Positions 42,575 through 58,486 of a stretch of 64,000 bases of DNA are shown piece by piece. Each line of letters begins with the position of its first letter. The stretch's first letter is position 1. The position numbers were made by a program, and so were the translations under genes. This DNA is from Halorubrum sp. PV6 (GTDB lineage: Archaea > Halobacteriota > Halobacteria > Halobacteriales > Haloferacaceae), in assembly GCF_003990725.2 (NCBI RefSeq), contig NZ_CP030064.1, positions 1,302,001 to 1,366,000 of the forward strand. Reading direction: 5' to 3'. The notes beneath the pieces were generated by a model. That model did not search any database and had not been told where the DNA came from. It was given only the letters and a program-made list of their open reading frames with translations.

Positions 42575-42790
42575 TCAAACTCCCTCCGGATCGAAGTTCA
42601 TCACTAACCGCTCTTTCGCGTCCTTCGCCTCGCCGCGTTTCCCGCTGTTGATGAACCGCTTCTCGTCGCGGTCGAGCACGTACACGTCCTCGAACCTCTC
42701 CGGCAGGTCCTCGTACGAACAGATACAGTCACCCTCCAGCCCCGCCAGCCCGGCGACGAGCGCCTCATGGCTGATTCTGTTCACAAGGGA
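42575..42790 (-). pseudogene. 3' fragment of a Dam-type adenine methyltransferase gene
   Basis: The translated end (ALVAGLAGLEGDCICSYEDL; DVYVLDRDEKRFINSGKRGE; AKDAKERLVMNF) is nearly identical to the last 70 residues of the intact Dam at 55713-56504. The catalytic DPPY and SAM motifs are missing, and upstream (about 42790 on) the frame joins unrelated sequence. GC is high, like the intact gene. It is a relic of another copy, probably from an earlier element. Confidence 0.9.
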
Positions 42791-43085
42791 GACCGCCAGC
42801 ACAGTCACGACCAGACCGCCGGAAACGACCTGGACTGTAACGCTCGCGAAGCGATGTTGAGGTGTAGCCCGTAGCAAGAAAGTAACTGAAGAGGTTGCCG
42901 CTGAGGTGGCTGGCGCTTGCGTGGAAGTACGCGGCCGTAAATACCGTGTACCACTGTGGATCGCTTGGTGCGAGTGCGAGTTGCTGTTGGAGGGCCATCG
43001 GAGTTAAAAAATAAACTATACACAAGAGAGCTGGTACTAACAGAATAAAGACTAAATCAACATTTGGTCTGTTCGGTTTTTCCAT
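42765..43085 (-). pseudogene. Truncated rhomboid-type membrane protease gene
   Basis: The N-terminal 85 residues match the rhomboid pattern: a first span (LVFILLVPALLCIVYFLTPM), then WYTVFTAAYFHASASHLSGN followed by LFSYFLATGYTS, the His/Asn region of the second span. The catalytic Ser (GxSG) and His segments are absent; after about residue 85 the frame runs into the Dam fragment. It is the front half of a rhomboid intramembrane protease gene cut by the join with the Dam relic. Confidence 0.65.
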
Positions 43086-43306: not shown

Positions 43307-44790
43307 TTGACATCCTCCCGCGCCTGAAGACGCGGGAATCCCACGGCACCGCACCGCTGAGTTGGGATATTACGGTTCGCGGTTAGCAACCTGTTCTCGT
43401 GGGGCGAAAATACCCTCACTACGGTCGAACAGGTGAACCGCTGGCTGTGCCAACCAGCCGTTATCCCTATCACCGCCATCCGTGGCGAGACTCGGGAGTA
43501 CCTTTTGCCGAATATTCTCCGCACCGTTAACGTCCGCGTTCGCCACCGTGTCGCACTCCTCACAGACGTACAGTCCGCGTTCAACGCGCTGATTCTTGTC
43601 TGTGTGACCACACGCTGAACACGACTTCGACGTGTCGCGTTCCGATTCTAACTCCACGTCGATGCCTTCCGCTTCCGCCTTGTAGTCGAGAAGCGTTGTG
43701 AAGCGGTCGAACGCCCACCCGTGCAAGTCGAGGTTGCCGTGGTCGCCCCAATTACGAGATTCGCCACTCTCATCATCCTCACGAATGCCGCCAAGGTCAC
43801 CAACGACAAGCGTCCCGACACCTCGTTCGACACACTGTTCCACGATCGCTTTCGAGAGGGAGTGTAAGAAGTGTGTCCGGCGACCAGTCCACTTCCGGTC
43901 AAGACGAGTCGCCTCAAGGGACGAAGAATCGTCGCACTTGGCCTTCTTTTTTGTGAAGTAGTATTCGTCCTCTTTGAGTGCGCCACCGGGATACAACACC
44001 GACTCGCCACCGAACGAGACGGCGGCGAAGTTGCAAATCCCGAGGTCAACACCGGCCACCCCGTCACCCGGCGGTTCCGGGTCAATCGTGGTGCGACAGA
44101 CGAATTGCAGTCGCCATTTGTCGCGTTTGTGGACGGCTCGAACCTGTTGAATATCCCACTCGGTTAGGTCAACATCCGGGCGAGTCTGATACTCACAGAG
44201 TATGAAGTCTGAACGGTGTTCTTTGAGGTTGCGACCTTTCGAGAGGCGAACGCGATTGAACTGTGCATCGTGCTTGAAGCCAGCCGATTTGAACGACACG
44301 GTTGAACGTGGGTGGGAATCGCCGCTTTTGCGATAGCCGGGCGGTCGGGCACGGTCGTCGCCGTTCTGACGCTTTCCGAACCAGCCGTTGAACGCTTCAG
44401 CGAGTTCTTCGAGAACGCGCTGACTGGATTGAGAATGTAAGTCCGTGTAGCGTTCGTGGCCCTTGAGTTCGGCTTTGAGTTCCCCGTCATCGGGAATCTC
44501 GCCCGTCTCGTCCCACTGTTCTTGTGCGTAGTAGCGACCGACGTTCCAGAGTTTTGAGGCGGCCCATCCGAGTTGGTCGAGGTAGTCACGAACCTGTTGC
44601 TGGTTCGTGATCGTGGCCTCGAAGGTTCGGATGGTTCGACTCATTTCTGGCTTCATAACTGGTTATGTGTGCCGTTTTGTTAATAGTGCCGGTTAGCGTG
44701 GAATATCCGGTTATGCCATCGACGGTGGTTGGTGCAGAGTATTGTCGGATTCATCCTGCGCCTAAAGGCGCAGGTATTCTCCTTGGTTCT
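43307..44790 (-). mobile_element. IS200/IS605-family element carrying only tnpB (IS1341 type)
   Basis: The ends are marked by hairpins: CCCGCG-8-CGCGGG (43317-43336) just beyond the tnpB 3' side, in the sequence context TTGACATCCTCCCG typical of haloarchaeal IS200/IS605 right ends, and the perfect stem CCTGCGCC-TAAA-GGCGCAGG (44755-44774) on the other side. No tnpA is present, so movement needs a transposase in trans. The strand that carries tnpB should also encode the omega RNA, overlapping the tnpB 3' end and the 43317-43336 hairpin, with guide from bases below about 43306. The exact outer limits are estimated. Confidence 0.85.
43370..44656 (-). CDS. tnpB: TnpB RNA-guided endonuclease (IS1341-type)
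   Basis: A 428-residue TnpB. The N-terminal part (TFEATITNQQQVRDYLDQLG; YYAQEQWDETGEI) is the WED/REC-like region. The RuvC domain has RuvC-I Asp in GVAGVDLGICNFAAV, the second motif in GTLVVGDLGGIREDDES, the zinc ribbon CSACGHTDKNQRVERGLYVC then EEC, and RuvC-III Asp in NADVNGAENIRQKV. In canonical TnpB the second motif has Glu before Asp-Leu; here Gly stands there, as I recall for other haloarchaeal TnpBs. TnpB cuts target DNA guided by omega RNA and helps retain the transposon. An ATG four codons later (MSRTIRTFEATI) is an equally good start. Confidence 0.92.
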   Translation of the reverse strand: MKPEMSRTIRTFEATITNQQQVRDYLDQLGWAASKLWNVGRYYAQEQWDETGEIPDDGELKAELKGHERYTDLHSQSSQRVLEELAEAFNGWFGKRQNGDDRARPPGYRKSGDSHPRSTVSFKSAGFKHDAQFNRVRLSKGRNLKEHRSDFILCEYQTRPDVDLTEWDIQQVRAVHKRDKWRLQFVCRTTIDPEPPGDGVAGVDLGICNFAAVSFGGESVLYPGGALKEDEYYFTKKKAKCDDSSSLEATRLDRKWTGRRTHFLHSLSKAIVEQCVERGVGTLVVGDLGGIREDDESGESRNWGDHGNLDLHGWAFDRFTTLLDYKAEAEGIDVELESERDTSKSCSACGHTDKNQRVERGLYVCEECDTVANADVNGAENIRQKVLPSLATDGGDRDNGWLAQPAVHLFDRSEGIFAPREQVANREP

Positions 44791-45564: not shown

Positions 45565-47568
45565 ATGAGCACAAGTGGTAATGAGGATTCCGCTGGGCTA
45601 TGGTGGTTTGAAGAAGTTCCCTGCGGTCGCTCCCGAAAACAGGGATTAATACAGAAGAAGACGTTCAGTCGAGATTTGGAGACTTTTGTCCGAGAAATTC
45701 TCCAAAATTCGACGGACGCAAGAGAGGATCCAAACGATCCCGTTAAAGTCTCGTTTCGTCTCCATGAGTTTGACGACCGCACTGTGTTCGAAGAGGCGTT
45801 GCGGTGGAACAAGCTGTATGATCACGTAAAGGCCGCTGGGAAGGATCAAGATGGACACGGACTCACAGATTACGTCGAATACCTTGAGGACGGAGGGACG
45901 TTCAGGATTCTGATTGTAGAAGAGGAGAACGCCAAAGGGATTCAAGGAAACGAGGAGGACCAGGACTCTGACTACGCAGCGCTAATACGTGACCCAGGTG
46001 CGAGTAACAAGGGAGGGAGTACAGGCGGTCGTCACGGGTTGGGAAGTACACTCCTCTGGGTTGCCTCTGGCTTTCAAACTGTCCTCTTCAATTCTACTTT
46101 GGCAAAGGAAATGGAAGGCCAGACCTCTCCTCGATTGGTCGGGCGGTGTTTCATTCCGACACACGAACTATCAGACGGGGAGTGCTACGCGAACGATGGA
46201 TGGTTCGGCGCCCAGTCGGGAATGGAGCGTGATGAGCTCCAACGGCCAGAGTCTATCTGGGGTGACGCTGCTAGTGACTTGGCTGACAATCTTGAGATGG
46301 GCCGGCCAGACAGTTACGGGACCACCATCATGATTCCGGGGTTCCGTGACCCGGCCGACCCAGCCATGGACGACCAACCCTCGCCGCAGGAGCTGTGTCG
46401 GGAGTTCGAAAAATCAACTGCGGACTACTTTTGGCCGGCAATCCGAGCGGGTGATCTAGAAGTCGACATCAACATGTGTGGTCACAGCTCAAGACTCACG
46501 AAAGATACTATCAAAGACCACGAGAGAATCGCTCCGTTCGTCACCTGCTACGATCAGATACGTGAGGCCCCAGAATCGTTCAAAGGACCGGGAACGGTAG
46601 CGAAGACCAACGAAGAGTATAGCATCGTCAGCAAGAAGGAAGACGAGTGTGAGGAGAACGAAGAGTACCCTACACCGTCTGACGGGCACGTAACTGTCGC
46701 CGCCCGGAAAGCTAATCCGAGCGATACCGAGGGACCAGCGTCTAAGCGAATCGGTGAGATAGCCATGTTCAGAGGTCCGGGCATGGTCGTGAAGTACAAG
46801 TCAGGCCACTACCTCGGCCACTCTGGAAAGTACCACGCTCTCCTCGCAGCAGGGAAAGCGCGCACTTTACCAGGGGAGTCCCACGATTCTACCGACGAAG
46901 CAATTGACGACTTTCTGGCGATGGCGGAGCCGCCGATGCATGACCGTTGGTACGGGGAAAAGAATGACGAGCTGAGCGCGAAGTACGAATATGGCGCGAA
47001 AGGGCCGGCTGACGACATCTCAACTAAGATTCTCCGCAACGGTCTCTCGAAGATACTGTACAACCAATCACGCCAAGGGGGGTCGCTGACACGACCTGGT
47101 CGCGACATACTGCCCAAAACGCGTTCGGATCTTGCGAAGGACGGGGGTACAAATCCTCCGACACCGACCATCCCACCGCTGTTTGACTGGGATATTAAGG
47201 ACGAGATCGTTGGAAACAGTTGGAATTTTACTGGCAGTATCGGACCGAATACCGAACGGAAACAGATCGCAGGAAATCCAATCGACGGATGGGAAACGAC
47301 TTTCGAAATCGTCGCACTCTTTGAGGACAACAGAGAGGCTGATACGGTCGTCATTGAAGACGTGGACGCCGAGGTGGAGAGTGGGAGTGGTTCGACCACA
47401 ACGGAAACCCTAGAACACGGTGAGAAAGGACGTATAGAGGTCCAAGGCGACGTCAAGAATGTAGAGTACAGTATCGAAGCTCGACTCCCTGGACGTCGGG
47501 CGCGGCTTGGAGATGTGTCGAAGACCAGACTCAAGCTGACGGATGGTTCCGTGGAGGTGAGTAGCTGA
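45565..47568 (+). CDS. Cassette 1 GHKL (Hsp90/MutL/MORC-like) ATPase
   Basis: A 667-residue protein. The N-terminal GHKL ATP-binding fold has the N box FVREILQNSTDA (Glu44, Asn48), a G1-like LIVEEENAKGIQG in which the usual adenine-contacting Asp is Glu120, and the lid GGRHGLGSTLLW (154-165). A transducer-like second domain has IAMFRGPGMVVKYK and AEPPMHDRWYGEKNDE. The C-terminal 180 residues are beta-rich (GNSWNFTGSIGPNTERKQIA). There is no histidine-kinase H box. It is a paralog of 51967-53859 with the same blocks in the same order. It heads a three-gene operon. GHKL ATPases of the MORC/MutL type are known beside restriction-modification genes; the role here is inferred. The start at 45565 (MSTSGNEDSAGLWW) is preferred to one eight codons upstream. 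Confidence 0.85.
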   Translation: MSTSGNEDSAGLWWFEEVPCGRSRKQGLIQKKTFSRDLETFVREILQNSTDAREDPNDPVKVSFRLHEFDDRTVFEEALRWNKLYDHVKAAGKDQDGHGLTDYVEYLEDGGTFRILIVEEENAKGIQGNEEDQDSDYAALIRDPGASNKGGSTGGRHGLGSTLLWVASGFQTVLFNSTLAKEMEGQTSPRLVGRCFIPTHELSDGECYANDGWFGAQSGMERDELQRPESIWGDAASDLADNLEMGRPDSYGTTIMIPGFRDPADPAMDDQPSPQELCREFEKSTADYFWPAIRAGDLEVDINMCGHSSRLTKDTIKDHERIAPFVTCYDQIREAPESFKGPGTVAKTNEEYSIVSKKEDECEENEEYPTPSDGHVTVAARKANPSDTEGPASKRIGEIAMFRGPGMVVKYKSGHYLGHSGKYHALLAAGKARTLPGESHDSTDEAIDDFLAMAEPPMHDRWYGEKNDELSAKYEYGAKGPADDISTKILRNGLSKILYNQSRQGGSLTRPGRDILPKTRSDLAKDGGTNPPTPTIPPLFDWDIKDEIVGNSWNFTGSIGPNTERKQIAGNPIDGWETTFEIVALFEDNREADTVVIEDVDAEVESGSGSTTTETLEHGEKGRIEVQGDVKNVEYSIEARLPGRRARLGDVSKTRLKLTDGSVEVSS

Positions 47569-47570
47569 AC

Positions 47571-48647
47571 ATGTCCAGCACGATCCAACTAAACCGACCG
47601 CTCAAGTACGAGACATTTCCTCACCACTGTGCGCTTGGCGAACTTGATTTCTGGATTGAAGAGTATGCGGTTGATGGCGACGAGGCTATCGAGCCGGAAG
47701 ACGACCGACGACTTGATCTCACCGAGTACCAAGGTTGGTCAGAGATTGAGTTCACCCTCTGTGTAAACGTCCCAAGTTCGCTCCTTAACGAAGTCCTTCC
47801 CGAGATCGGAGAAAGTACCGCGGCTGACCCCCCGGACAAAGGGCCCGCGGACGTCGTCATAGCTGGTCACTGTGTGAGTACCTACACGCGAGCAGGGACA
47901 GTCCTGAACGATGGACACGAAGTCGGTGCTGAAACGGTAGACGACACGCTCACAATCTCCGCAGACAATATAGAGGATAGACTCGTTCTCCGTCCCTACC
48001 TCCTCCGGTCTAAGCCTCTCAAATCAAAAACTGAATCGTCACTCGGGTTGGCACCGAGCCATGACTATGCGACCGAACCTGGAACCCTCCTTTCTGACGG
48101 TAGTGAGTGTCGGATCGAAATCACCGAGGAAGATCCGGGGAGCGACGATGTGCTACAAGTTGAGCGGACATCATTTGAGAGAGAGAATGAAGACGACGAA
48201 ACGCCGTTCCCGCCAGCCGATCGGATGTACTACCTAGATCTGAAACGAGATCCAAACAATCCAGTCCTTTATTTCAATGAGGATCATGACCAGGTGGTTG
48301 ATATTGTGTGGAACGGAGATAGCAATTACGACGATCTCACGGCCGAGTTGATCTGGGATCAAGTAATGACGCCCGTATGGACCAGAATGGTCCAGGTCGC
48401 TGCCGACGAGTATAATTCCGACTCAAAAGAGTGGACACCAGAGTGGCAACCAGCGGTATTCGAAATGTTGAGTGAGTACCTGTATGAAGGAGAAGATAAG
48501 TCTCCACAGAAAGCCGCAGAGTCGCTACAACAGGAGCTAGAAGAAAGTCCCATGGCTGCGACAGAACGGATTGAACAGGCGGTCCAGGGGCTACTAAATC
48601 CTGCTGAACAGGTCAATAACCACGCAAAGAGGGTGGGTGGCCGATGA
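47571..48647 (+). CDS. Cassette 1 second protein, unknown family
   Basis: A 358-residue protein starting two bases after the ATPase stop. The first 230 residues are beta-rich (FPHHCALGELDFWIEEYAVD; ADVVIAGHCVSTYTRAGTV; RLVLRPYLLRSK), the rest helical (LIWDQVMTPVWTRMVQVAAD; QPAVFEMLSEYLYEG). The block DRMYYLDLKRDPNNPVLYFN aligns with EKRLYHLDFRKVDSPKLWIN in the cassette 2 counterpart, so these are paralogs. No known enzyme motif. The tight spacing and its conserved place between ATPase and third gene in both cassettes imply a structural or DNA-binding subunit of one complex. Confidence 0.8.
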   Translation: MSSTIQLNRPLKYETFPHHCALGELDFWIEEYAVDGDEAIEPEDDRRLDLTEYQGWSEIEFTLCVNVPSSLLNEVLPEIGESTAADPPDKGPADVVIAGHCVSTYTRAGTVLNDGHEVGAETVDDTLTISADNIEDRLVLRPYLLRSKPLKSKTESSLGLAPSHDYATEPGTLLSDGSECRIEITEEDPGSDDVLQVERTSFERENEDDETPFPPADRMYYLDLKRDPNNPVLYFNEDHDQVVDIVWNGDSNYDDLTAELIWDQVMTPVWTRMVQVAADEYNSDSKEWTPEWQPAVFEMLSEYLYEGEDKSPQKAAESLQQELEESPMAATERIEQAVQGLLNPAEQVNNHAKRVGGR

Positions 48648-49441
48648 GCGTTTGGGATCCTAGCAGTGATCTTGAGGATGGACAGGAGCTGGTTAGACTG
48701 GCGGATGGGGCACAGAGTCTGCTCAGTAAGTACGATGAGTTTCTACGTGGCGATTACGACAGCATCCCTCAGACGGAACTTGAGCCACATATCCAATCGA
48801 CTGGGCTGACAGCCGACTTAGCCACGCTGGAAGATGAACTGAGGGCCATCGCGTCGGATACGACCCCCGAAACCGCGCAAGCAGACCCGGAGTCGGCTGT
48901 CGTTGTTCATCGCTGTGTTGATCTAACCCGGGCGGAGGCGTCCGATTCGGGGCTCTGGAGTGCGTTTGCGATATTATACTTCCCATGGTTTGTTAACCAT
49001 CGATGGGCGTTCAACAGCGTTTCGGCGATGAAAGAGAAGTTCTGGACACAGGCTAGGGCTCTTGACGGGAAAGCCAGTACTTTTGAGCGAGCCTGGTGGA
49101 TAGCTGAGCTGACGTGTGAGGAGAATGATGATGGGAGCGTTAATTACGAACCCACCCGGCGCGCACTCAGCAGGCGACGATTCTCGCTTCTAGTTTTCGA
49201 CACACCCATGGCCCGATATGAACCGGCAGTGAGGGCTCTACTTGATGTGTTGTACGACGAAGCAGAGGACGACGAAGAGGGAAGTTTGGTAGACAACGAC
49301 GTCATTGACGAGACAATCAAGCGTTTCAGGAAGTCTGGCTCGGTCTTCCCCTATGAGGGGCAACGAAAGTCCGATCTGAAAAAGACCCTTCGTAGTATCC
49401 GCAGTGAGGTAGAGGAGTCAACCGCAGCCACTGATTCGTAG
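48644..49441 (+). CDS. Cassette 1 third protein, DUF6339-like
   Basis: A 265-residue helical protein overlapping the second gene by four bases (ATGA). The core SGLWSAFAILYFPWFVNHRW then TFERAWWIAELTCEENDD aligns with SGVWHYLATVRYPDFVRHRW and ALHRLWWIAELTREGDDY of cassette 2. This RxWWIAELT block and overall length fit my recollection of DUF6339, a family seen in bacterial operons with GHKL ATPases and methyltransferases; that is memory, not a search. Function is unknown; it contains no evident nuclease motif. A 236-base gap without genes separates it from the convergent methyltransferase-like gene. Confidence 0.78.
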   Translation: MSVWDPSSDLEDGQELVRLADGAQSLLSKYDEFLRGDYDSIPQTELEPHIQSTGLTADLATLEDELRAIASDTTPETAQADPESAVVVHRCVDLTRAEASDSGLWSAFAILYFPWFVNHRWAFNSVSAMKEKFWTQARALDGKASTFERAWWIAELTCEENDDGSVNYEPTRRALSRRRFSLLVFDTPMARYEPAVRALLDVLYDEAEDDEEGSLVDNDVIDETIKRFRKSGSVFPYEGQRKSDLKKTLRSIRSEVEESTAATDS

Positions 49442-49677
49442 AATATCGCTAGAACCCTCCAGAACAGGGTTGCGATTCAAAAACCGAACCAGCTGGATTT
49501 TGCGCAATCTAAAGTGGCTAACAAAGGGCCTATGGTAATTCAGTCTTATATCATACTATAACTCAAAGGGTATATCTCCTGAGACTGATCGGTTGAACGC
49601 TTAATGTGAGGAAGACATCATCAGACAGCCCGAAATGGTCAAATCTAGAGTGAAAGAAGGCCTCCAGACACAGTTGG

Positions 49678-50469
49678 TTACTCTTCGAAGTCGGTCAGTT
49701 GTTTATTGTCTGCTTCTCGCCGGCTGGTTTCCATCCGCTCGTCGTAGTCAGAATAATCGACACGATTCTCAGTTACGCCCTGCTCTTCCTCGTAGACCGC
49801 TAACCACGCTCTGACCAGGTACTGGATGAAGGGTGCGGGGATCGTGTTCTTGGCCATGTGTTGCTTGGTGTATGGCCTTGGGTCGTACCCTTTTGTTGAC
49901 GCCCACCACTCCTTTGACCGCTCTGAGAAGAAGAACGACGAGGTCTCGGTCGTGTCAGAACTACCGTTCGTGGTCAAGAACGCCCTCTCACGGGGCGGTG
50001 AAGCTACGTGGAAGGAAGTCTCGAATGCGCGCTCATACTCTATCGGAAGGCCAAACATCCGCCCGCTGAGGATTGTCGGATCCCGGAGTGGTTCGGCTTT
50101 CGGGACATTCTCAATGACGTAGTGGTCGCAGTAATCCTGAGCGATAGAACGAGCACTCGGAATCATGTTCTCGTGCTCGTCAGGGTCCCCTGAGATACTC
50201 GTCGTCGCTGCCCACTTGGTACATACGGGGTGGAAGACGCCGAGGTCAAACGTCACCTCGTCCTTAATCGGGAAACCCCAGTCTTTCTCTTCGTCACCCT
50301 CAGGCAGGAGATGAGCGTCCGCAGCGATCGGCTCACTCTCGTTCGTGTCTTGAGGATCGATGCTCACTCGAATGACGTCACCGAAGTTTGAGAGCACCTC
50401 CGACTCAGTCCCCTTGTCGGCGAAGCAGTGGAGAATAGTTGGCCGTTCATCGTCCCTATACTCACTCAT
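49678..50469 (-). CDS. Divergent cytosine-C5 methyltransferase-like protein
   Basis: A 263-residue protein with the order of a DNA cytosine-5 methyltransferase but altered motifs. Motif IV, normally PCQ, reads DLGVFHPVCTKWAAT (Cys83). Motif VI is HYVIENVPKAEPL (Glu120-Asn121-Val122), followed by RMFGLPIEYERAFETSF, a counterpart of the GxPQxRxR region. The motif I region is compact (ILHCFADKGTESEVL) and no TRD or GNAVPP end is visible, although the late PAPFIQYLVRAWL corresponds to the final helix. It resembles short phage enzymes. It may methylate DNA or act on free nucleotides, or be a non-catalytic relative. It is downstream of the full-length methyltransferase, 149 bases after, on the same strand. 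Confidence 0.72.
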   Translation of the reverse strand: MSEYRDDERPTILHCFADKGTESEVLSNFGDVIRVSIDPQDTNESEPIAADAHLLPEGDEEKDWGFPIKDEVTFDLGVFHPVCTKWAATTSISGDPDEHENMIPSARSIAQDYCDHYVIENVPKAEPLRDPTILSGRMFGLPIEYERAFETSFHVASPPRERAFLTTNGSSDTTETSSFFFSERSKEWWASTKGYDPRPYTKQHMAKNTIPAPFIQYLVRAWLAVYEEEQGVTENRVDYSDYDERMETSRREADNKQLTDFEE

Positions 50470-50618
50470 GGGTTCACCCTAACGAAAGTAGATAAGACGC
50501 TCTTAGCACGAATAGGAACTAGTAGCGAGCCTTCAGATACTCCGGGGCTAGCCATCTTACCCGAACTCTATGCGGAGCGAATATATTTCCCTCGCATGGA
50601 GTCGGGGGAGCTCTCGAA

Positions 50619-51725
50619 TCAGTCTGCGATGGATGGTTCTGGGACGGCTTCCTCCCCGGCGTCGTAGTGCGAGAGGATTGCTTCACCAATACGCTGGCCG
50701 AGCAGCGGAGGTACGGCGTTCCCGATCATACGGCCGAGGCGTGTAATTGACGCGTCATCCCAGTCTTTAACGAACTTGTAATCTTCGGGGAAGGTCTGAA
50801 TCATCGCGCCCTCGAGAACCGAGAGTGCGCGATCTTGTTCGGTGTCATAGTGACCGAACCGGCCGCTCCCGTAGTTGTAGAACTGTGTTGTCATCGTCGG
50901 TGCCGGCTCATCAGGCGACATCCGCCCGTAAGGTGCTCTGTAGCTACGCCCGCTGGCCTTCTTATGACAATCAAGTAGCAGGTGTTCTTTGTCCTCTTCT
51001 TCCCACACGGTCCAGTCCTCGCCAGGCCTCATGTTCCGGATCCGCTCTTCGTTCAGTTCGGAAAGGTCACGAGCTTGGTGTAGCTTCCGATCGGGATCTT
51101 TTTCACCGTTCTCAAGCGGGGGTAGATGGCCAATTGCGTCGCGTACGGTCGGGTACTCCGACTCGTCTGTCGTGACTGGCTCGCCTAGTTCAATAGTGCC
51201 ATCAAGCGAAGCGATCAAGACCCATCGTTTCCGCTTCTGAGGGATTCCATACTCTGGGCAGTAGACGTTCTTGTCTTCGTCGCTATTTACCGAATATCCC
51301 ATTCTCTCGAGCGTCTGTTCAAAGATCTCGTACGGTCGGTGGTTTCGAACCTCGAAGACGTTCTCCATCACCACGACGTCGGGACGGACATACTCTACAA
51401 TATCACGGAACTCGCCAAGCATCCCATACTTGTCGTGTTGGCTACTATCGCCTCCGTGGTTCATTGGTGAGAACGGCTGACAGGGGGCACAACCGGCGAG
51501 TATCCGGACATCAGCGTTTCGCTCGAATTGAGCAGCGATCCGCTCCGGGTTCTTTGCGAGCGGCCGGATGTCCGTGAGACGGAAGTCCGCATCATTATTC
51601 TCCTCATACGGATACTTACACTCAGGGTCGACGTCAATCCCGACCGAGACGTCGACGCCGGCATCCTCGAGGCCTCTAGTGAGACCACCCGCTCCACAGA
51701 AGAGGTCGACAGCGGATACTTTCAT
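50619..51725 (-). CDS. DNA (cytosine-5) methyltransferase between the two cassettes
   Basis: A complete 368-residue C5-methyltransferase. Motif I is DLFCGAGGLTRGLEDAG (7-23), motif IV the catalytic PCQPFSPMNHGG (Cys82), motif VI MENVFEVRN (Glu121), motif VIII IPQKRKRWVLIAS, and motifs IX-X APTMTTQFYNYGSG ... LGRMIGNAVPPLLGQRIGEA. The target-recognition domain lies about 195-290; the recognised sequence is unknown. It transfers methyl from SAM to cytosine C5. It is divergent from cassette 2 (241 bases apart) and convergent, with the short relative, on cassette 1. It could mark self DNA for the ATPase complexes or be their sensor input. Confidence 0.94.
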   Translation of the reverse strand: MKVSAVDLFCGAGGLTRGLEDAGVDVSVGIDVDPECKYPYEENNDADFRLTDIRPLAKNPERIAAQFERNADVRILAGCAPCQPFSPMNHGGDSSQHDKYGMLGEFRDIVEYVRPDVVVMENVFEVRNHRPYEIFEQTLERMGYSVNSDEDKNVYCPEYGIPQKRKRWVLIASLDGTIELGEPVTTDESEYPTVRDAIGHLPPLENGEKDPDRKLHQARDLSELNEERIRNMRPGEDWTVWEEEDKEHLLLDCHKKASGRSYRAPYGRMSPDEPAPTMTTQFYNYGSGRFGHYDTEQDRALSVLEGAMIQTFPEDYKFVKDWDDASITRLGRMIGNAVPPLLGQRIGEAILSHYDAGEEAVPEPSIAD

Positions 51726-51966
51726 GCTGTATCCTCTTTAACCGCGACATTAAATCTTCTGTGCGATCTCTCGGGGACTCTCAAGATTGTGGAGCCTGGG
51801 AGAATAATAGTCATTTCTCCGACTCAAATCGACGCGATAATACCACCCTCGATACATTAGCAATACAAGACATGACTGACCAATATTTCCCGCTACGTCG
51901 AAGCATCTATCATGACATGAGGCCGGAGACGGTGAGTCAACGTCCGAAGAATTAGTAAGCTGATTC
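51726..51966. other. Divergent control region between methyltransferase and cassette 2
   Basis: These 241 bases hold the promoters of both divergent operons. No gene is supported and no strong inverted repeat was noticed. A TATA-like ATTAGTAA sits about 51951-51958, too close to the ATG at 51967 for a leaderless start from that codon. Confidence 0.4.
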
Positions 51967-53859
51967 ATGGATATGAATAATATTGCGCAAGAAGCGAAGT
52001 GGCACTTCTACGACGGCGGACAGAGTGCGCCTCGATTCGGTGGCGACCCTACTAAACACGCGGTTGACCATAATACAGAGAGCTTCGTCCGAGAGGTCCT
52101 GCAAAACTCGAATGACCAAGCTCTGCCGAACGATATGCCGGTTGAGGTGACGTTCCGCTTGGTGGAGCTTTCTGGTGACGAACTTCATGAGTTTCTTGAA
52201 GCGATCAATTGGGAGAGCGGGCTACGAGACCGTATTGGTGCCGTAGCTAGGTCCGATAGAGGTCGAGGGTTCCAACAATTTCAGGAGCAGTTGGAGGATG
52301 AAGATCCCTCTCTTCGTATACTCATCGTTGAAGATAGAAACACAACTGGACTCACTGGAAACTGGGATGAGGACTCGAACTACGCAGCGCTCGTCCGGGA
52401 CGAGCTTTACAGTCAGAAACAGGACGAGACAGCCGGTGGGTCGTATGGCCTCGGCAAGTCGGTTCTCTGGACCTTCTCGGGGGCATCTACTGTCGTATTC
52501 AATTCGTATCTAAGCGAACCTTCCGAACGGGGATTCCGTCAACGGCTCATTGCCCGGACAAAGCTTCCGACGCACAGCTTGGATGAAGACGGTACGGAGT
52601 ACCAAGGAGCAGGTTGGCTCTGTACTATCGACAACTCGGAGGAAGACCCCAAGCCTCGCTCGTTGTGGGGCTCAACGGCTGAATCACTAGCCGAGCGGCT
52701 CGGTGTTAACCGGCCAACCACTCCGGGTACTAGCGCGATGGTCGTAGGGTTCCGCGACCCAGCACGAGATCGCACGCCGAGCCTCAAGAGTCTCGGACAA
52801 GAGCTCGTTGACGCCGCCGCGAAGTATTTCTGGCCCGCAATGTACCGGAACGATCTCGTTGTAAACGTGGAGGTGGGTTCTGAGACGACAGAGGTTGACG
52901 TAGACAATCACTCGGCAGTACAGCCGTTTGTTGACGCCTACGCGAACCGATACAACGGCGAGACGGGACTTGAGACCCCCGGCGATGTTGCGGGACGCGA
53001 CATCAAGGTAGAACTCCCGAAGAGGGACGACGGAACACAGAGTGAGAGCGGGCCTGTCAGGCTCGCAGCTCGCCTAGCTTCGCCTGTTGACGATCCCACC
53101 CTACGGAACCACGTCGCTATGTTCCGGGGCTCGGGAATGGTAGTGAAGTACTACGACCAGAGTCGGGTGTCTTTCGGGGACCGGAACTTTTTCGCAGTCT
53201 TAGCGGCTGGTACTGCCCGGTCAACTGGTGCTCCCCGAAGATCGGACGAGGAGATTGACCGATTCCTCCGATTCGCCGAACCGCCCGAACATGACGAGTG
53301 GCGCTCAACAGAGAACCTGAAAGAGCAATATATGCAGGGTTATCGGAAGGCAATCCTAAATCTTGAGGCAGACATCCGGGAGGAGCTTCGGAACCTCGTC
53401 TCACGAGGTGGACGAGGAGATCGTAATTTACCTGAGAACGTCTTGAAGAAGTTTCCAATACACGGGCAGGGGCGTCGTTCCAGCTCACCGGCCAACTCAA
53501 AATCATTTGAACTGGACGGTACGGCGTTCTTCGAACGGGACCGCTGGCGTTTCAGTGGGAGTGTGGAACCCGAGGCGGACGACCATTCCGGCTGGACGGC
53601 CCAGATATCTCTTACTGGAGTCGGTGAAGACGGGACGAAGTATCGGCAAGTACCGCTAGAATCGGCCGAGGTTGACGTTGAGGGGGTAGACGTCGTTGAG
53701 CAAGACGGAGCGATGGTTCTGAGAGCTTCGCCGGGAGTAGGAAGGGTAGAGTTTCGTGGAGCGTCTCGTTCAATCGGTCACGCGGACTTCTTCGACGGTT
53801 CAGTCGGTGAGACTCAACTGGAAGTTGACGCTGAGGTCCGACTTGGGGGTGACGAGTGA
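51967..53859 (+). CDS. Cassette 2 GHKL (Hsp90/MutL/MORC-like) ATPase
   Basis: A 630-residue paralog of the 45565-47568 protein. GHKL motifs are better preserved than in cassette 1: N box FVREVLQNSNDQ (Glu43, Asn47), G1-like LIVEDRNTTGLTG with Asp123, and lid GGSYGLGKSVLW (157-168) with Lys164. The transducer-like part has VAMFRGSGMVVKYYDQSRVS and FAEPPEHDEWRSTENLKEQY, then a beta-rich C-terminal domain (GTAFFERDRWRFSGSVEPEA). Paralogs share the order of every block. ATP binding is expected to close the dimer as in MutL/Hsp90; the effector step is unknown. It overlaps the second gene by four bases. MDMNNIAQEAKWHFYDGG is the chosen N-terminus; the second Met is possible. Confidence 0.87.
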   Translation: MDMNNIAQEAKWHFYDGGQSAPRFGGDPTKHAVDHNTESFVREVLQNSNDQALPNDMPVEVTFRLVELSGDELHEFLEAINWESGLRDRIGAVARSDRGRGFQQFQEQLEDEDPSLRILIVEDRNTTGLTGNWDEDSNYAALVRDELYSQKQDETAGGSYGLGKSVLWTFSGASTVVFNSYLSEPSERGFRQRLIARTKLPTHSLDEDGTEYQGAGWLCTIDNSEEDPKPRSLWGSTAESLAERLGVNRPTTPGTSAMVVGFRDPARDRTPSLKSLGQELVDAAAKYFWPAMYRNDLVVNVEVGSETTEVDVDNHSAVQPFVDAYANRYNGETGLETPGDVAGRDIKVELPKRDDGTQSESGPVRLAARLASPVDDPTLRNHVAMFRGSGMVVKYYDQSRVSFGDRNFFAVLAAGTARSTGAPRRSDEEIDRFLRFAEPPEHDEWRSTENLKEQYMQGYRKAILNLEADIREELRNLVSRGGRGDRNLPENVLKKFPIHGQGRRSSSPANSKSFELDGTAFFERDRWRFSGSVEPEADDHSGWTAQISLTGVGEDGTKYRQVPLESAEVDVEGVDVVEQDGAMVLRASPGVGRVEFRGASRSIGHADFFDGSVGETQLEVDAEVRLGGDE

Positions 53860-54884
53860 TGGTTGACTCTAAGAGTCAAAAGCTGCGTCAGACTGCTCTC
53901 CCCTACCCGTACCGCGATAATGGGCTCTCACTTCAAATAGAGGAATACCAGTTAGAAGACGAGCAACCGGTTGAGCTTGATCAGGAACAAGACAATTTAA
54001 CAGTTGACCTTGCGATCAACGAGAGCGATCCTTGGGAGCACGCTACGCTCCGTGGGGAGGTAAATCTCCCCGAAGACGTAGTACAATCCGTGTATCCGCC
54101 GGATGAACGTTCCTCTCCTCCTGGGAAACTCTATGTGGCAGTTCGGTGCCCAGAAACCATTTACAGAGACCGGGTAGACGTGGGTACCAGTGAAACAGAA
54201 GGAGGTCTTGACCCAGGTGTCCATGAAGTTGAGATTTCGCTAGAGAGCAACGATCTCCGGGGTAAGGTTCAGCTACTCCCGTTTCTTGTTCGTTCTTTTG
54301 AAGGCGATAGTGACGGTCAGTTTGCGACGACTCCAAACGTCAGGCTAGCGAGTGGTGAACCGTGGACAGTTGTCGTTGATGAAGAGGAAGAGAGCGGGAG
54401 TCGTCTTATTGAGGGTGAAGAGGCCGAGTTTAGTGAGCATGATCACCTCCCCGGTGAGAAGCGCCTATACCACCTAGACTTCCGGAAGGTCGACAGCCCA
54501 AAACTTTGGATTAACAGCGACCACAGCCGTATAGTAGACATACTCCACGCAAATGGCTCAGTCGGTGCGGAAGCTCGAATGCGCGATGTTGTGCTCGATC
54601 AGATTCAGCAAGGTGTCTGGTCCCAGCTTGTAGTGCGAGCAATTTCGGATGTTGATGATGAGGGCGAGCCCCGACACGACTGGGAAAGAGCAGTACTCAA
54701 TATCTTCGCTCGAGACTTGACTGACGAGGAAGATGTCACGCAGGCGTCGATTCAACTTCGAGAAGAACTCAACGATCCAGAGGGGGTCGCTGTTCTAATG
54801 GAACGACTGGACGGAGCGATTCAGGACTATATTGATCCGCGAGATCAGCTGATCAACCTCATTGAGGAAGGGCTTCAAATATAA
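53856..54884 (+). CDS. Cassette 2 second protein, unknown family
   Basis: A 342-residue counterpart of 47571-48647. Beta-rich first two-thirds (NGLSLQIEEYQLEDEQPVEL; GKLYVAVRCPETIYRDRVDV; LRGKVQLLPFLVRSFEGD) and helical end (VVLDQIQQGVWSQLVVRAIS). The shared central block KRLYHLDFRKVDSPKLWIN then SDHSRIVDILHANG links the paralogs. No catalytic motif. ATGATGG at the start overlaps the ATPase stop (53856-53859), so translation is coupled. The equal gene order in both cassettes supports a fixed stoichiometric complex. Confidence 0.8.
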   Translation: MMVDSKSQKLRQTALPYPYRDNGLSLQIEEYQLEDEQPVELDQEQDNLTVDLAINESDPWEHATLRGEVNLPEDVVQSVYPPDERSSPPGKLYVAVRCPETIYRDRVDVGTSETEGGLDPGVHEVEISLESNDLRGKVQLLPFLVRSFEGDSDGQFATTPNVRLASGEPWTVVVDEEEESGSRLIEGEEAEFSEHDHLPGEKRLYHLDFRKVDSPKLWINSDHSRIVDILHANGSVGAEARMRDVVLDQIQQGVWSQLVVRAISDVDDEGEPRHDWERAVLNIFARDLTDEEDVTQASIQLREELNDPEGVAVLMERLDGAIQDYIDPRDQLINLIEEGLQI

Positions 54885-55579
54885 TGAGCGAACAACCATT
54901 ACGCCGACTGACTGCTGATGGACGACGATTGATCGGGGAAGAGTTCCTCAAGGGAACCAAGGGACAGGTGATCGCGGGTGACGAGCTCGCAGAGTATCTT
55001 GAACTTGAGCCCTCGGGCGAGCAGGTCCAGTTGAGCCAGCTGGATGATGAATTAGAATCAATAGTTAGCTCGTACGATCGGTTCGACACGTCAATTGACG
55101 CCGCGGCGGCACCTGCGGTCAGAGCGTCGCTGAATATGTCTCGGCGTGTTGCGGCAGACTCTGGAGTTTGGCACTATCTTGCGACTGTCCGTTACCCGGA
55201 CTTCGTTCGTCATCGATGGGAGTTCACTAGCAAGAAGGCGATGACAGAGAAGTTCCTCGGTGCGGGAACGGACATTTACTCAAACGCACTCCACCGTCTC
55301 TGGTGGATTGCTGAACTCACTCGCGAGGGTGACGACTACACACTGACTGAGGAGGTTCTCTCAAACCAGACACTGGCGAACAAAATATTCGACCGGTGGT
55401 TCGCACGCTATGAACCAGCTGCGAAGGTCTGTTCTGAGAAACTGATCGGCGAACCTTCGGATGTCGTAGACGAATCGACTCGTCGGTTCAACCACGCACT
55501 CACGAACCTCCAATTAGAGGGGCTTGACGAAGATGACATAGAGCGAGTGATGGACCGTATCCTTGATGACATAAGGTGA
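54884..55579 (+). CDS. Cassette 2 third protein, DUF6339-like
   Basis: A 231-residue counterpart of 48644-49441, starting on the last base of the previous stop (TAATG). The helical core VWHYLATVRYPDFVRHRWEF then HRLWWIAELTREGDDYTLTE and FDRWFARYEPAAKVCSEKLI matches the cassette 1 protein. Family resemblance to DUF6339 is from memory. It lacks the longer acidic loop of its paralog. No nuclease motif was found. It ends the three-gene run; 133 bases without genes follow before the convergent Dam gene. Confidence 0.78.
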   Translation: MSEQPLRRLTADGRRLIGEEFLKGTKGQVIAGDELAEYLELEPSGEQVQLSQLDDELESIVSSYDRFDTSIDAAAAPAVRASLNMSRRVAADSGVWHYLATVRYPDFVRHRWEFTSKKAMTEKFLGAGTDIYSNALHRLWWIAELTREGDDYTLTEEVLSNQTLANKIFDRWFARYEPAAKVCSEKLIGEPSDVVDESTRRFNHALTNLQLEGLDEDDIERVMDRILDDIR

Positions 55580-55712: not shown

Positions 55713-56504
55713 TTAGATCATCTCCGGCTTGAAGTTCATCACCAACCGCTCTTTCGCGTCCTTCGCCGATCCGCGCTTCCCGCTGTTGATGAACCGCTTC
55801 TCGTCGCGGTCGATCACGTACACGTCCTCGAACGTTCCCGGAAGGTCCTCGTACGAGCAGATCCAGTCGCCCTCCAGTCCCGCGAGCCCGTCGACGAGCG
55901 CCTCGTGGTCGATCGTGTTCACGAGGTAGTAGTCCTCGTAGCCGACGTACGGCGGGTCGCAGTAGAACACGGTGTCCTCGCTGTCGTACTTCTCGAAGAC
56001 GTCCGCCCAGTCGAGGTTCTCGACGACCACGTCCCCGAACCGCTCGGCGAACTCGTCGAGGCGGTCGACCTTGTTCGCGTACGACAGCGCCCGACTCGAC
56101 ACCTTCGAGGTCCCGAACCCGGCTGGGCCGTCGTACTTCCCGCCCCATTGGGTGTACCGGAGGTAGAAGAACTGACCGGCACGCTCGATCGGGTCGCTCG
56201 GCCGGTAGCCGTGGAAGAGCTTGTGCGCCCACTCGCCGTGGAGCTCACGCGAGTACGGCGTCCGGTCGAGCCACGCGACCAGTTCCTCGCAGCGGTCGCG
56301 AAGGACCTCGAAGAACTGGACGAGGTCGCCGTCGCGGTCGTTGTACACTTCGACCGTGCTCGTGTCCGGGTCCTTGTTCGCGAGCACGCCAGCGGCGCCC
56401 CCGAACACTTCTACGAAGCAGGTGTGCTCCGGGACCTGATCGAGGATCCACGACGCGAAGCGACTCTTCCCACCGGGGTAGGGGAAAACGGCGTCCGCCA
56501 TCAC
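55713..56504 (-). CDS. dam: Dam-type DNA adenine-N6 methyltransferase (D12 class)
   Basis: A 263-residue alpha-class N6-adenine methyltransferase. Motif X is FPYPGGKSRFASWIL, motif I EVFGGAAGVLANKD, and motif IV DTVFYCDPPYVGYEDYY (DPPY 183-186). The late block DVYVIDRDEKRFINSGKRGS is shared almost exactly with the 42575-42790 fragment. D12-class enzymes methylate adenine at short sites such as GATC; the site here is not deducible. Such orphan genes are common on haloarchaeal proviruses, protecting element DNA. The ATG overlaps the stop of the upstream small gene by four bases. Confidence 0.93.
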   Translation of the reverse strand: MMADAVFPYPGGKSRFASWILDQVPEHTCFVEVFGGAAGVLANKDPDTSTVEVYNDRDGDLVQFFEVLRDRCEELVAWLDRTPYSRELHGEWAHKLFHGYRPSDPIERAGQFFYLRYTQWGGKYDGPAGFGTSKVSSRALSYANKVDRLDEFAERFGDVVVENLDWADVFEKYDSEDTVFYCDPPYVGYEDYYLVNTIDHEALVDGLAGLEGDWICSYEDLPGTFEDVYVIDRDEKRFINSGKRGSAKDAKERLVMNFKPEMI

Positions 56505-57247: not shown

Positions 57248-58300
57248 TCAGCAGGGGCTGGGGTTCGTCTGGGAGCCTTCGGGACCGACAAGGTGGTACC
57301 GCTTCGAACCACGATCCTGCTCGATGTCGATGAGGTTGTAGTGCTCCAGCTTCGGCAGATGGTTCTCGCGGAGGTACCGCAGCGTCACGGGGTCGTCGTG
57401 CGCCTCCTGGTACCGCGCGTACAGCTCTTTCTGGATGAGCCCGTCCTCCTCGGCGAGGACCTCGTACAGCGCACGCTGATGCGTGTTCAGCTTCGAGATC
57501 GTCTTCTGCCGAACCTCGCGTTCGGCGTCGGCGACCGCGTCCTCGACGAGTCGCCCCGGAATCGCGGCCAGTCCTTCGCGGGAGGCCATCCGCGCCGCGA
57601 CACGCAACCCCGCGATCGCCTGCCGCGCGTCTCCTTCGGAGAGGCGGGCGATGCGCCGAAGCACGTCCTCGTCGACGGCGTTCGGTCCGAGTCCTTCGCG
57701 AGCTCGCCGGGAGAGAATCTCCGTGATCGCGTCCTCGCCGTAGGTGTCGAACCGAACGCGGTAGGCGACGCTGATCCGAGAGGTGATTCGATCGTCGAGG
57801 TCTGCGAGCAGATCGACCTCCCGGTTTGCGATACCAATCCACGAGAGTCCGGGGATATCGTGGAGGTCGTAGAGCACCTTCGTCTCGCGGAGCTGATCGA
57901 CCTCGTCGAGGATGACGACGCCCGGCCCGTGGAGATCAGCCTTGATGCGGTCGATGAGCCGACTCGTTGAGGCCGATCGCGGCATCGCGGCGCCGACGAG
58001 TTCGTGGGATATCTGGTCGAGTACCGCGTTTCTGGTGTAGTACTTCCAGCAGTTAACGTAGGCGTAGGGGACATCAAGAACTTCTCGTCGGAGCTCGCGA
58101 ACAGCGGCTTTCGCGACCGTCGTTTTCCCGACACCGGAGGGGCCAAACAGAAAGCAGTTCTCTGCGCGAAACCCGTCTTGGATCGGTGCGAGAGCGTCTG
58201 TCACTTCGTTCATGTGCCGGTTTCGGTCGACGATCGGGTCGGGCAAGTGTCCCTCTTCGAAGACCGCTCCGTTGCGTACCACGTCTCCGTCGCGTATCAC
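57248..58300 (-). CDS. orc: Orc1/Cdc6-family replication initiator ATPase
   Basis: A 350-residue AAA+ ATPase with the Orc1/Cdc6 plan. Walker A is GPSGVGKT (53-60), Walker B VVILDEVDQL (about 128-137), sensor 1 GIANREVDLL, the arginine-finger region DDRITSRISVAYRVRFDTYG, sensor 2 SEGDARQAIAGLRVAARMAS. The C-terminal winged helix spans about 260-340 (LNTHQRALYEVLAEEDGLIQ; YARYQEAHDDPVTLRYLREN). Such proteins bind origins and load the MCM helicase. As a paralog inside an integrase-bounded segment it probably initiates replication of the element. ATG 58300 fits the box at 58326-58331. Confidence 0.92.
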   Translation of the reverse strand: MIRDGDVVRNGAVFEEGHLPDPIVDRNRHMNEVTDALAPIQDGFRAENCFLFGPSGVGKTTVAKAAVRELRREVLDVPYAYVNCWKYYTRNAVLDQISHELVGAAMPRSASTSRLIDRIKADLHGPGVVILDEVDQLRETKVLYDLHDIPGLSWIGIANREVDLLADLDDRITSRISVAYRVRFDTYGEDAITEILSRRAREGLGPNAVDEDVLRRIARLSEGDARQAIAGLRVAARMASREGLAAIPGRLVEDAVADAEREVRQKTISKLNTHQRALYEVLAEEDGLIQKELYARYQEAHDDPVTLRYLRENHLPKLEHYNLIDIEQDRGSKRYHLVGPEGSQTNPSPC

Positions 58301-58325: not shown

Positions 58326-58361
58326 CATAAGCCGACCCCCGAGTGTTCCGGACGGTTCCGG
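58326..58361 (-). promoter_or_regulatory. Promoter and shared GTTCCG element C (orc gene)
   Basis: Plus-strand CATAAG (58326-58331; CTTATG on the minus strand) then 13 bases then GTTCCGGACGGTTCCGG (58345-58361). Box to orc ATG (58300) is 25 bases. The layout matches elements A and B almost to the base. The element also lies about 125 bases before the restriction-modification methyltransferase on the other strand. Confidence 0.75.
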
Positions 58362-58453
58362 ATGATCCTAGTCGAAGGAGACAGTCGATACCTCCTGGTT
58401 TTAGAGCCAAACACAGATCCTTGAGACCGGTGACAGAAGCCGTAGAGCCAATG

Positions 58454-58461
58454 ATTAAATA
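58454..58461 (+). promoter_or_regulatory. TATA box of the type II methyltransferase gene
   Basis: ATTAAATA, 25-32 bases before the ATG at 58487. This position indicates that the earlier in-frame starts at 58343 and 58451 are not used. Confidence 0.65.
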
Positions 58462-58486
58462 CGGTACGGAGCCAGATTCGATACAG

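What the first reader, a model, noticed from the sequence alone, without database searches (positions are those of the whole stretch)
45565..55579. Twin GHKL-ATPase cassettes around two cytosine methyltransferase genes: a candidate new defence system
Two co-linear three-gene operons have the same order, comparable sizes and paralogous proteins in all three positions: GHKL ATPase (667 and 630 residues), a beta-rich protein (358 and 342) and a DUF6339-like helical protein (265 and 231). Between them, on the other strand, lie a complete C5-methyltransferase and a divergent short relative. Seen directly: shared blocks (FVRE-LQNS; RLYxLDxR; WWIAELT), four-base and one-base overlaps, position in an accessory island with three other methyltransferases. 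Known: MORC/MutL-type GHKL ATPases were described beside bacterial restriction-modification genes, in operons that also carry a Z1-domain ATPase and an endonuclease. Here both of those are missing and the ATPase set is doubled. Inference: the two complexes work as a hetero-pair licensed by methylation.
Basis: partly seen in the sequence, partly recalled or inferred. Interest (0 to 1): 0.88.

Follow-up and report, generated by a model that had tools for sequence, protein, structure and literature searches.

The report
Paired MORC-type ATPase cassettes with methyltransferases
A salt-loving archaeon carries two different copies of a three-gene ATPase cassette around two DNA-methylating genes, an arrangement that recurs in many of its relatives and looks like an unusual, still untested antiviral restriction system.

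Summary
Two cassettes (A, GHKL ATPase; B; C, DUF6339; 35/24/32% identical) flank a C5-methyltransferase (M) and a short relative (m). A's predicted fold is MORC/MutL-type (Z 17.6 to MORC3). It carries the ExxxH signature of paraMORC2 (Iyer 2008), and A and C match the PADLOC candidate PDC-M33, so the cassette itself is not new. Some bacterial relatives sit with a Z1 helicase, a PD-(D/E)XK nuclease and C5-methyltransferases. New is the haloarchaeal layout: of 391 genomes of the window's class 29 have A; 25 of these carry 2-3 cassettes, never two of one clade; 28 of 28 assessable genomes have two or more methyltransferase genes beside them; partner cassettes are swapped as whole blocks; DISARM drmB lies 4-9 kb away in 13 of the 20 genomes with strong DrmB. 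Z1 and the nuclease were not detected in the 29. Best reading: a methylation-gated restriction-type array whose cassettes act together, the nuclease supplied elsewhere or replaced by DNA clamping. Defence, pairing and methylation gating are inferred, not shown. New variant of a known kind.

The parts
45565..47568 (+). A1: GHKL ATPase of the partner cassette ('beta' clade); GTG start at 45541 also possible
   Evidence: 35% to A2; PDC-M33A E 3.5e-25; adenine-site Asp replaced by Glu in all 8 beta-clade rows
47571..48647 (+). B1: Ig-like beta-sandwich plus helical domain (by homology to the B2 model)
   Evidence: B2 model
48644..49441 (+).
   Evidence: PF19866 E 2.6e-15; PDC-M33C E 1.1e-10
49678..50469 (-). 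m: compact C5-methyltransferase-like protein (263 aa)
   Evidence: phrog_363 E 9.3e-5; conserved HCFAD.GTESE, HPVC, IENV, NTIPAPFIQYL blocks in 21 homologues
50619..51725 (-). M: C5-cytosine methyltransferase of the DrmMII type
   Evidence: PF00145 E 6.9e-47; PADLOC DrmMII E 1e-157
51726..51966 (.). divergent intergenic region between M and A2, likely holding both promoters
   Evidence: coordinates; M lies directly upstream and divergent of the core A in 19 of 23 loci; promoter role inferred
51967..53859 (+). A2: GHKL ATPase of the 'core' clade; GHKL+S5 about 18-483, beta-sandwich 514-625
   Evidence: MORC3 Z 17.6; PDC-M33A E 8.8e-28
53856..54884 (+). B2: Ig-like beta-sandwich (18-178) plus helical domain (224-339)
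   Evidence: model pLDDT 89.2
54884..55579 (+).
   Evidence: PF19866 E 5e-19; PDC-M33C E 8.7e-13

Best explanation
A restriction-type, methylation-gated defence array built from two different paraMORC2/PDC-M33 cassettes. M and m (or M plus a second C5-MTase, M', in some relatives) mark host DNA with 5-methylcytosine (family and motifs shown; activity inferred). Each A-B-C set forms one complex (three-gene linkage shown; complex inferred). In it A is an ATP-driven MORC/MutL-type clamp (fold predicted), B an Ig-like docking or DNA-contact subunit and C a further subunit (roles inferred). The frequent 'core' cassette (A2-B2-C2, next to M) and an exchangeable partner cassette (A1-B1-C1) act on the same unmodified DNA, the partner adding specificity or effector recruitment (inferred). 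In some bacteria the clamp works beside a Z1 helicase and a PD-(D/E)XK nuclease. In the haloarchaeal carriers neither was found, and the destructive step is supplied either by neighbouring DISARM DrmA/DrmC, by another nuclease in trans, or is replaced by clamping alone (inferred; unresolved for this window).
For: A2 fold: the 50 rows shown are all GHKL proteins (MORC3 Z 17.6, MORC4 16.5, SMCHD1 16.2, MutL 16.1). ATP-site columns are 92-100% conserved in 100 aligned A proteins and ExxxH is in 99 of 100. B and C follow 59 of 60 haloarchaeal A genes, the 60th A being split. Arthrobacter A/B/C match PDC-M33A/B/C (E 3.5e-82, 6.4e-30, 1e-31). Bacterial cassettes sit with Z1 plus DUF4420 nuclease (4 of 6 neighbourhoods scanned), C5-MTases, dcm+vsr (annotated) or Z1. 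25 of 29 haloarchaeal genomes with A have 2-3 copies, 0 of 25 with two of one clade (7.4 expected by shuffling; 0 of 20,000 shuffles). 28 of 28 assessable genomes hold at least two C5-MTase-like genes in the stretch; m and M' largely replace each other (Fisher 2.9e-6). [m,M,A2,B2,C2] is 85/92/88/82/88% identical to G190, whose partner cassette is of another clade, while [A1,B1,C1] is 84/86/83% identical to G184, whose core is 57/45/54%. A second kind of linked pair occurs in cyanobacteria. An HhH-GPD glycosylase gene is in the stretch in 20 of 29 genomes.
Against: No virus-challenge, methylation or binding data exist here. No nuclease was recognised in the eight genes. Four haloarchaeal genomes have a single A match genome-wide (G145, G215, G319 and the fragmented G261), and 14 of 14 Myxococcota genomes with A have one match. 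Three multi-cassette genomes have no core cassette (G188, G243, G330), so a core-partner pair is not obligatory. Two MTases with two cassettes also fits two independent systems. The clade-avoidance, MTase and DISARM tests do not correct for genome relatedness. Profile-profile comparison of A with MutL/TopoVI-B was not significant, and Foldseek's best GHKL match was E 1.6e-5 (GyrB); the GHKL call rests on a predicted model plus motifs.
Confidence: 0.55

Rival explanations
1. Two complete, independent single-cassette systems that merely live side by side: one with M, one with m, each protecting against different targets, with no hetero-pair.
For: Single cassettes are common in bacteria (14 of 14 Myxococcota genomes). 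Cassettes move as whole blocks independently of each other. At least two MTase genes per locus. In some cyanobacteria each cassette has its own associates, one with M and one with Z1 plus nuclease.
Against: MTase number does not follow cassette number: five of six three-cassette genomes have two MTases, and three one-cassette genomes also have two. Two cassettes of one clade never share a genome (0 of 25). One core clade is present in 22 of 25 multi-cassette genomes.
Confidence: 0.3
2. A DISARM accessory module: the array normally works with DrmA/DrmB/DrmC, and the window is a version that lost DISARM.
For: 13 of 20 genomes with strong DrmB also have A, against 29 of 391 overall (Fisher 6e-12), DrmB lying 3.9-9.2 kb from an A gene in all 13 (coordinates). 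X8 is DrmA, X4 DrmB, X3 DrmC in the representatives scanned. M is DrmMII-like. In DISARM, 5mC lowers DrmAB ATPase activity (PMC9142583, passages).
Against: 16 of 29 genomes with A lack strong DrmB (one of these, G114, has a weak match), and the window's genome has no DrmA or DrmB match. Seven strong-DrmB genomes lack A. Bacterial cassettes occur with Z1 systems instead. Using all 52 DrmB genomes the link is weaker (14 shared, p 1.7e-6).
Confidence: 0.2
3. Not defence: an accessory chromosome-maintenance or gene-regulation module that uses MORC-type ATPases and methylation.
For: No nuclease recognised; fold closest to eukaryotic MORC/SMCHD1 chromatin proteins.
Against: Patchy presence (29 of 391 genomes in 20 of 86 genera), low-GC island, presence on plasmids, R-M or DISARM genes among the neighbours.
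Confidence: 0.1

Closest known systems
paraMORC2 GHKL ATPases in Z1-type restriction-modification operons (Iyer, Abhiman and Aravind 2008, PMC2292703; author names recalled)
   Same: GHKL+S5 architecture, ExxxH motif, neighbourhoods with methylases, Vsr, SFII (Z1-type) helicase and RE-fold nuclease (bacterial relatives)
   Different: In the 29 haloarchaeal genomes Z1 and DUF4420 were not detected; cassettes are doubled or tripled from different clades and stand with two MTases. The parts read (2 of 4 of the main section, plus passages) do not describe this, though they do mention neighbourhoods that hold a MORC and a paraMORC1 together.
PADLOC candidate PDC-M33 (A, B, C)
   Same: Same three genes in the same order; A and C match directly, B through a bacterial relative
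   Different: Haloarchaeal B is too diverged to match; here cassettes come in heterologous sets with two MTases. No paper naming PDC-M33 was found in the library, so no test of it was seen.
DISARM class II (DrmMII, DrmA, DrmB, DrmC)
   Same: M is DrmMII-like; strong DrmB lies within 10 kb of an A gene in 13 of 29 genomes
   Different: No drmA or drmB match in the window's genome; a search joining DISARM, GHKL and DrmA listed two papers with both DISARM and GHKL, neither about this by its title.
Mza system (Z1 protein MzaC in PADLOC)
   Same: The Agrobacterium relative has an MzaC-like Z1 protein directly before the cassette
   Different: No Z1 found in the 29 haloarchaeal genomes; the window's A proteins matched no Mza model in PADLOC.
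Shedu type I-D VcSduA (paraMORC3 type; PMC12137116, passages)
   Same: Defence protein with a GHKL ATPase domain thought to control a nuclease
   Different: There ATPase and nuclease are in one protein; here no nuclease domain was recognised in A, B or C.

Membership tests
paraMORC2 | N-terminal GHKL domain with conserved ATP-binding motifs plus S5 domain | tested here: met
   A2 model, residues 18-483 align to MORC3/MutL with Z 16-17.6; motif columns 92-100% conserved in 100 rows
paraMORC2 | ExxxH in the C-terminal part of the S5 domain | tested here: met
   E438 and H442 in 99 of 100 rows, the other row being a split gene; they lie in the last part of the aligned range 18-483
paraMORC2 | direct sequence match to the original paraMORC2 members | not tested
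   their list is in a supplement that was not available
paraMORC2 | neighbourhood with Z1-type helicase and RE-fold nuclease | tested here: not met
   met in 4 of 6 bacterial neighbourhoods scanned but neither family detected in the window's genome or in the other 28 haloarchaeal genomes with A (positive control); a usual context of the family, not a feature of the protein
PDC-M33 | A and C components | tested here: met
   PDC-M33A E 3.5e-25 and 8.8e-28, PDC-M33C E 1.1e-10 and 8.7e-13
PDC-M33 | B component | tested here: inconclusive
   window B1/B2 give no match; an Arthrobacter B at the same place matches PDC-M33B E 6.4e-30, the S. elongatus B does not match; haloarchaeal-type B profile reaches some bacterial B proteins
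DISARM class II | DrmA and DrmB | tested here: not met
   no DrmB or DrmA match in the window's genome; so not filed as DISARM
DISARM class II | DrmMII-type C5-methyltransferase | tested here: met
   PDLC02651 E 1e-157
MORC family proper | MORC-specific S5 motif of Iyer et al. | not tested
   only fold similarity was tested
classical restriction-modification | endonuclease in the set | tested here: inconclusive
   no nuclease match in Pfam/PADLOC/NCBIfam for the cassette genes and none recognised in the A2/B2 models; C was not modelled

The most novel reading that the evidence does not exclude
A prokaryotic MORC-type silencing defence: two different paraMORC complexes, a frequent core one and a swappable one, pair up and clamp or compact DNA that lacks the host's double 5-methylcytosine mark, blocking viral genomes without cutting them. 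This would be a prokaryotic counterpart of eukaryotic MORC-based silencing, and DISARM would be an optional destructive add-on.
Probability: 0.2. Interest if true: 0.88.

Novelty: new variant of a known kind. Interest (0 to 1): 0.64.

Why it matters
MORC-type ATPases act in genome defence and silencing in eukaryotes, and their prokaryotic relatives were predicted in 2008 to act in restriction. Here the ATPase cassette lacks the helicase and nuclease it has in some bacteria, is multiplied into heterologous sets, exchanged as blocks and found beside DISARM in about half of the haloarchaeal carriers. That makes a concrete, testable case for what the ATPase does by itself, and links PDC-M33/paraMORC2 with DISARM.

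Tried and rejected
Sequence proof of GHKL: Pfam on 11 A proteins gave no GHKL family, a profile against PDB sequences found nothing significant, and hhalign to MutL/TopoVI-B gave probability 2-4.5% although the N-box and G-box registers were right. The predicted fold settled it: Foldseek gave GyrB at E 1.6e-5 and otherwise mostly beta-sandwich matches of the C-terminal domain; the realignment put MORC, SMCHD1 and MutL first.

B fold: best VIA-align Z 7.7 and Foldseek E 1.1e-3, to unrelated Ig-like or beta-sandwich proteins; below the level that shows kinship, so only 'Ig-like sandwich plus helices' is claimed. C and B profiles against PDB sequences: nothing significant.

'Apparent loss of C in 8 cassettes' was an ORF-start artefact: all 8 have a full C. 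'A1-type lacks the G-box Lys, so is a dead ATPase' was dropped: two partner clades lack it and pair with each other, and GyrB-like loops lack it too (recalled). The Asp-to-Glu change in the beta clade is kept as an observation only.

Viral carriage: a pattern-based scan of IMG/VR confirmed no relative (19 stretches matched a pattern, none confirmed); one weak 6-kb phage-labelled contig, not followed. Control: the DUF4420 search in haloarchaea rang in no control genome, so five bacterial genomes known to have it were searched: 5 of 5 positive.

Papers that held no 'GHKL': PMC12458937, PMC12988326, PMC4158269, all by word search only.

Caveats: the DrmB cut (20 genomes, best E 2.8e-95 or better) was set after seeing a gap in the list (next 1.1e-37); all 52 DrmB genomes give 14 shared, p 1.7e-6. 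In the clade-shuffle test two rows were grouped as one further clade and four unplaced rows counted as clades of their own. Counts of M, m and HhH-GPD cover only the stretches fetched (mostly 20 kb). G261 (contig end) was left out of the MTase count; G139's M was found among unselected ORFs. The 100-row alignment left out bacterial A fragments under 480-550 aa. Trees are quick ones without bootstrap. Paper listings showed at most 20 rows of what matched.
Full report
What is there. The window lies in a 3.04-Mb genome (G000:C1:1302001-1366000), haloarchaeal by its named relatives. Between 45565 and 55579 are A1-B1-C1, then m and M on the other strand, then A2-B2-C2. The three gene pairs are paralogous: 35% (E 9e-82), 24% (E 3.5e-22) and 32% (E 4e-30). 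C is DUF6339. M is a complete C5-methyltransferase whose best PADLOC match is DrmMII of DISARM (E 1e-157). m is a 263-residue protein with weak phage-MTase similarity and, across 21 homologues, conserved blocks that look like C5-MTase motifs I, IV, VI and X (motif names recalled).

What A is. The AlphaFold2 model of A2 (44-sequence alignment, mean pLDDT 82.5) aligns over residues 18-483 with MORC3 (Z 17.6), MORC4 (16.5), SMCHD1 (16.2) and MutL (16.1); the other rows of the 50 shown are GHKL proteins too, such as Hsp90/TRAP1, TopoVI-B and GyrB. The C-terminal 514-625 is a beta-sandwich. In 100 aligned A proteins (60 haloarchaeal, 40 bacterial) the ATP-site columns are 92-100% conserved, and E438/H442 (ExxxH) are in 99 of 100. 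Iyer et al. 2008 (PMC2292703; abstract, parts 1 and 2 of 4 of the main section, and passages seen) mark paraMORC2 by ExxxH in the S5 domain, place it in restriction-modification neighbourhoods, and say it is scattered over bacteria and archaea, mostly cyanobacteria and Gram-positive bacteria. In the beta clade (window A1) the Asp at the adenine-site motif is Glu in 8 of 8 rows and in no other row.

What B and C are. The B2 model (mean pLDDT 89.2) is an Ig-like beta-sandwich plus a helical domain; best matches are generic (Z up to 7.7). No nuclease was recognised in A, B, C or m.

Known relatives. A and C match PADLOC's PDC-M33A and PDC-M33C, and an Arthrobacter plasmid cassette matches all three, A/B/C (E 3.5e-82, 6.4e-30, 1e-31). 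PDCs are candidate systems that PMC12988326 (passages seen; 'M33' is not in it) attributes to Payne et al. 2024, a preprint seen only as a citation. Searches for PDC-M33 and DUF6339 found no paper in the library. Searches joining GHKL with anti-phage/MORC, with haloarchaea, with DISARM, with paraMORC and with defence islands gave listings (at most 20 rows each) in which no title or abstract start describes this layout.

Bacterial context. tblastn of A2 found 21 plasmid records. Six bacterial ones were opened: cassettes of the same order sit beside a C5-MTase (Synechococcus elongatus), near dcm+vsr (Deinococcus, Arthrobacter), after a Z1 protein (Agrobacterium), near an AlwI-type restriction gene (Lactococcus) and among other R-M genes (Ligilactobacillus). 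Upstream genes of six cyanobacterial and myxobacterial neighbourhoods were scanned: in four (L104, L113, L123, L125) a Z1 protein and a DUF4420 PD-(D/E)XK nuclease stand directly before A; in the other two the gene scanned was an integrase (L115) and an acyl-CoA dehydrogenase (L120). L123-L125 also have an HhH-GPD gene nearby. Neither was found in the 29 haloarchaeal genomes with A (Z1 0 of 29, control positive in Corynebacterium; DUF4420 0 of 29; DUF4420 5 of 5 in known carriers).

Haloarchaeal layout. A is in 29 of 391 genomes of the window's class, in 20 of 86 genera. 25 of the 29 have 2 (19) or 3 (6) copies, linked within about 25 kb except in G008, where they lie at contig ends. 59 of 60 A genes are followed by B and C; the 60th A is split. 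Within a genome the copies are 26-40% identical; copies of one clade in different genomes are 37-96% identical. One 'core' clade (23 rows, SH-aLRT 100) is in 23 of 29 genomes and lies directly divergent to M in 19 of 23 cases, with a small ORF between in 3 more. No genome has two cassettes of one clade (0 of 25; 7.4 expected; 0 of 20,000 shuffles). Three multi-cassette genomes lack the core (G188, G243, G330). The 35 haloarchaeal rows of a 56-row tree form one group against the bacterial ones (midpoint root, SH-aLRT 100), so the set probably diversified inside haloarchaea; B and C trees give similar groups.

Module exchange. The window's m-M-A2-B2-C2 is 85/92/88/82/88% identical to G190, whose second cassette belongs to another clade; the window's A1-B1-C1 is 84/86/83% identical to G184, whose m/M/core are 70/60/57/45/54%. 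The partner cassette is therefore swapped as a three-gene block.

Two methyltransferases. 28 of 28 assessable genomes hold at least two C5-MTase-like genes in the stretch examined: M plus m (19), M plus a second M' (8), or all three (1). Of the 9 genomes with two M genes 8 lack m, and none of the 19 others does (Fisher 2.9e-6). The number does not follow the number of cassettes: five of six three-cassette genomes have two, as do three one-cassette genomes. An HhH-GPD glycosylase gene (PF00730 E 1.2e-13; PADLOC 'type II nicking endonuclease' E 9.8e-28) is in the stretch in 20 of 29 genomes; like Vsr in bacteria it probably repairs deaminated 5mC (recalled role of such enzymes). It was not found in the window's locus; weaker homologues lie elsewhere in the genome (best 34%).

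DISARM link. DrmA, DrmB and DrmC genes occur in the flanks of several loci. 20 of 391 genomes have a strong DrmB; 13 of these are among the 29 with A (Fisher 6e-12), and in all 13 DrmB is 3.9-9.2 kb from an A gene (coordinates). Seven strong-DrmB genomes lack A and 16 A genomes lack strong DrmB (one, G114, has a weak match), the window's among them. In published DISARM work 5mC, the DrmMII mark, lowers DrmAB's DNA-stimulated ATPase activity (PMC9142583, passages), which makes methylation gating plausible for a DrmMII-linked array.

Pairing outside haloarchaea. In cyanobacteria 9 of 386 genomes have A. Four show two linked matches, and the map of a fifth (L117) shows a second A; a Cyanobium contig (L101) has two, and the S. 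elongatus plasmid carries a second cassette with a nuclease and a Z1 protein upstream. In these mapped genome loci (L101, L113-L117) the cassette nearer the haloarchaeal type adjoins a C5-MTase gene. In Myxococcota 14 of 282 genomes have A, all with one match. Heterologous pairing has thus arisen or persisted more than once but is not universal.

Mechanism and doubts. The most likely working is a methylation-gated restriction-type system in which MORC-type clamps sense unmodified DNA. Shown: gene content, family matches, fold prediction, linkage, exchange. Inferred: complex formation, pairing, methylation gating, defence. Open: the effector in loci with neither DISARM nor Z1, as in this window. 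The neighbouring C5-MTase plus type II restriction-enzyme-like gene at 58343-60984 looks like a separate system, though a nuclease in trans cannot be excluded.

Noticed in passing
window 58343-60984: C5-methyltransferase followed by a gene matching a PADLOC type II restriction enzyme model (E 8.8e-32): a separate type II R-M pair in the same island.
   Followed up: partly
window 43370-44656: TnpB/IS605 OrfB-type gene (PF01385 and Cas12f1-like TNB domain) just upstream of the first cassette.
   Followed up: no
window 55713-56504 and about 42575-42877: A complete D12-type adenine methyltransferase gene and, 13 kb away, a 100-aa piece resembling it.
   Followed up: no
window 57248-58300: Orc1/Cdc6-type AAA ATPase (Cdc6 lid domain) in a higher-GC stretch (about 64%) beside the cassettes, which may point to an integrated replicon.
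   Followed up: no
window 41093-41830: 245-aa protein with weak T5orf172 and, oddly, SeqA C-terminal-like matches (E 3e-5, just under the cut-off).
   Followed up: no
L042:5861-7387 and 11 other loci: A 508-aa family (X2); the member scanned has no Pfam or PADLOC match. It lies directly upstream of the delta-clade ATPase gene in 11 of 12 delta cassettes (the 12th is at a contig start).
   Followed up: partly
L043:1147-4710, L047, L050: Very long proteins (777-1187 aa); the one scanned (L043) has a weak DrmE C-terminal match (E 0.0035); found in loci of genomes that have DrmB.
   Followed up: no
L051:17006-18767 and five more loci: Two-gene unit (about 335 and 260 aa, no Pfam family over its cut-off in the pair scanned; the second with a weak BrxA match) next to the core cassette, on its DISARM side in several loci.
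   Followed up: no
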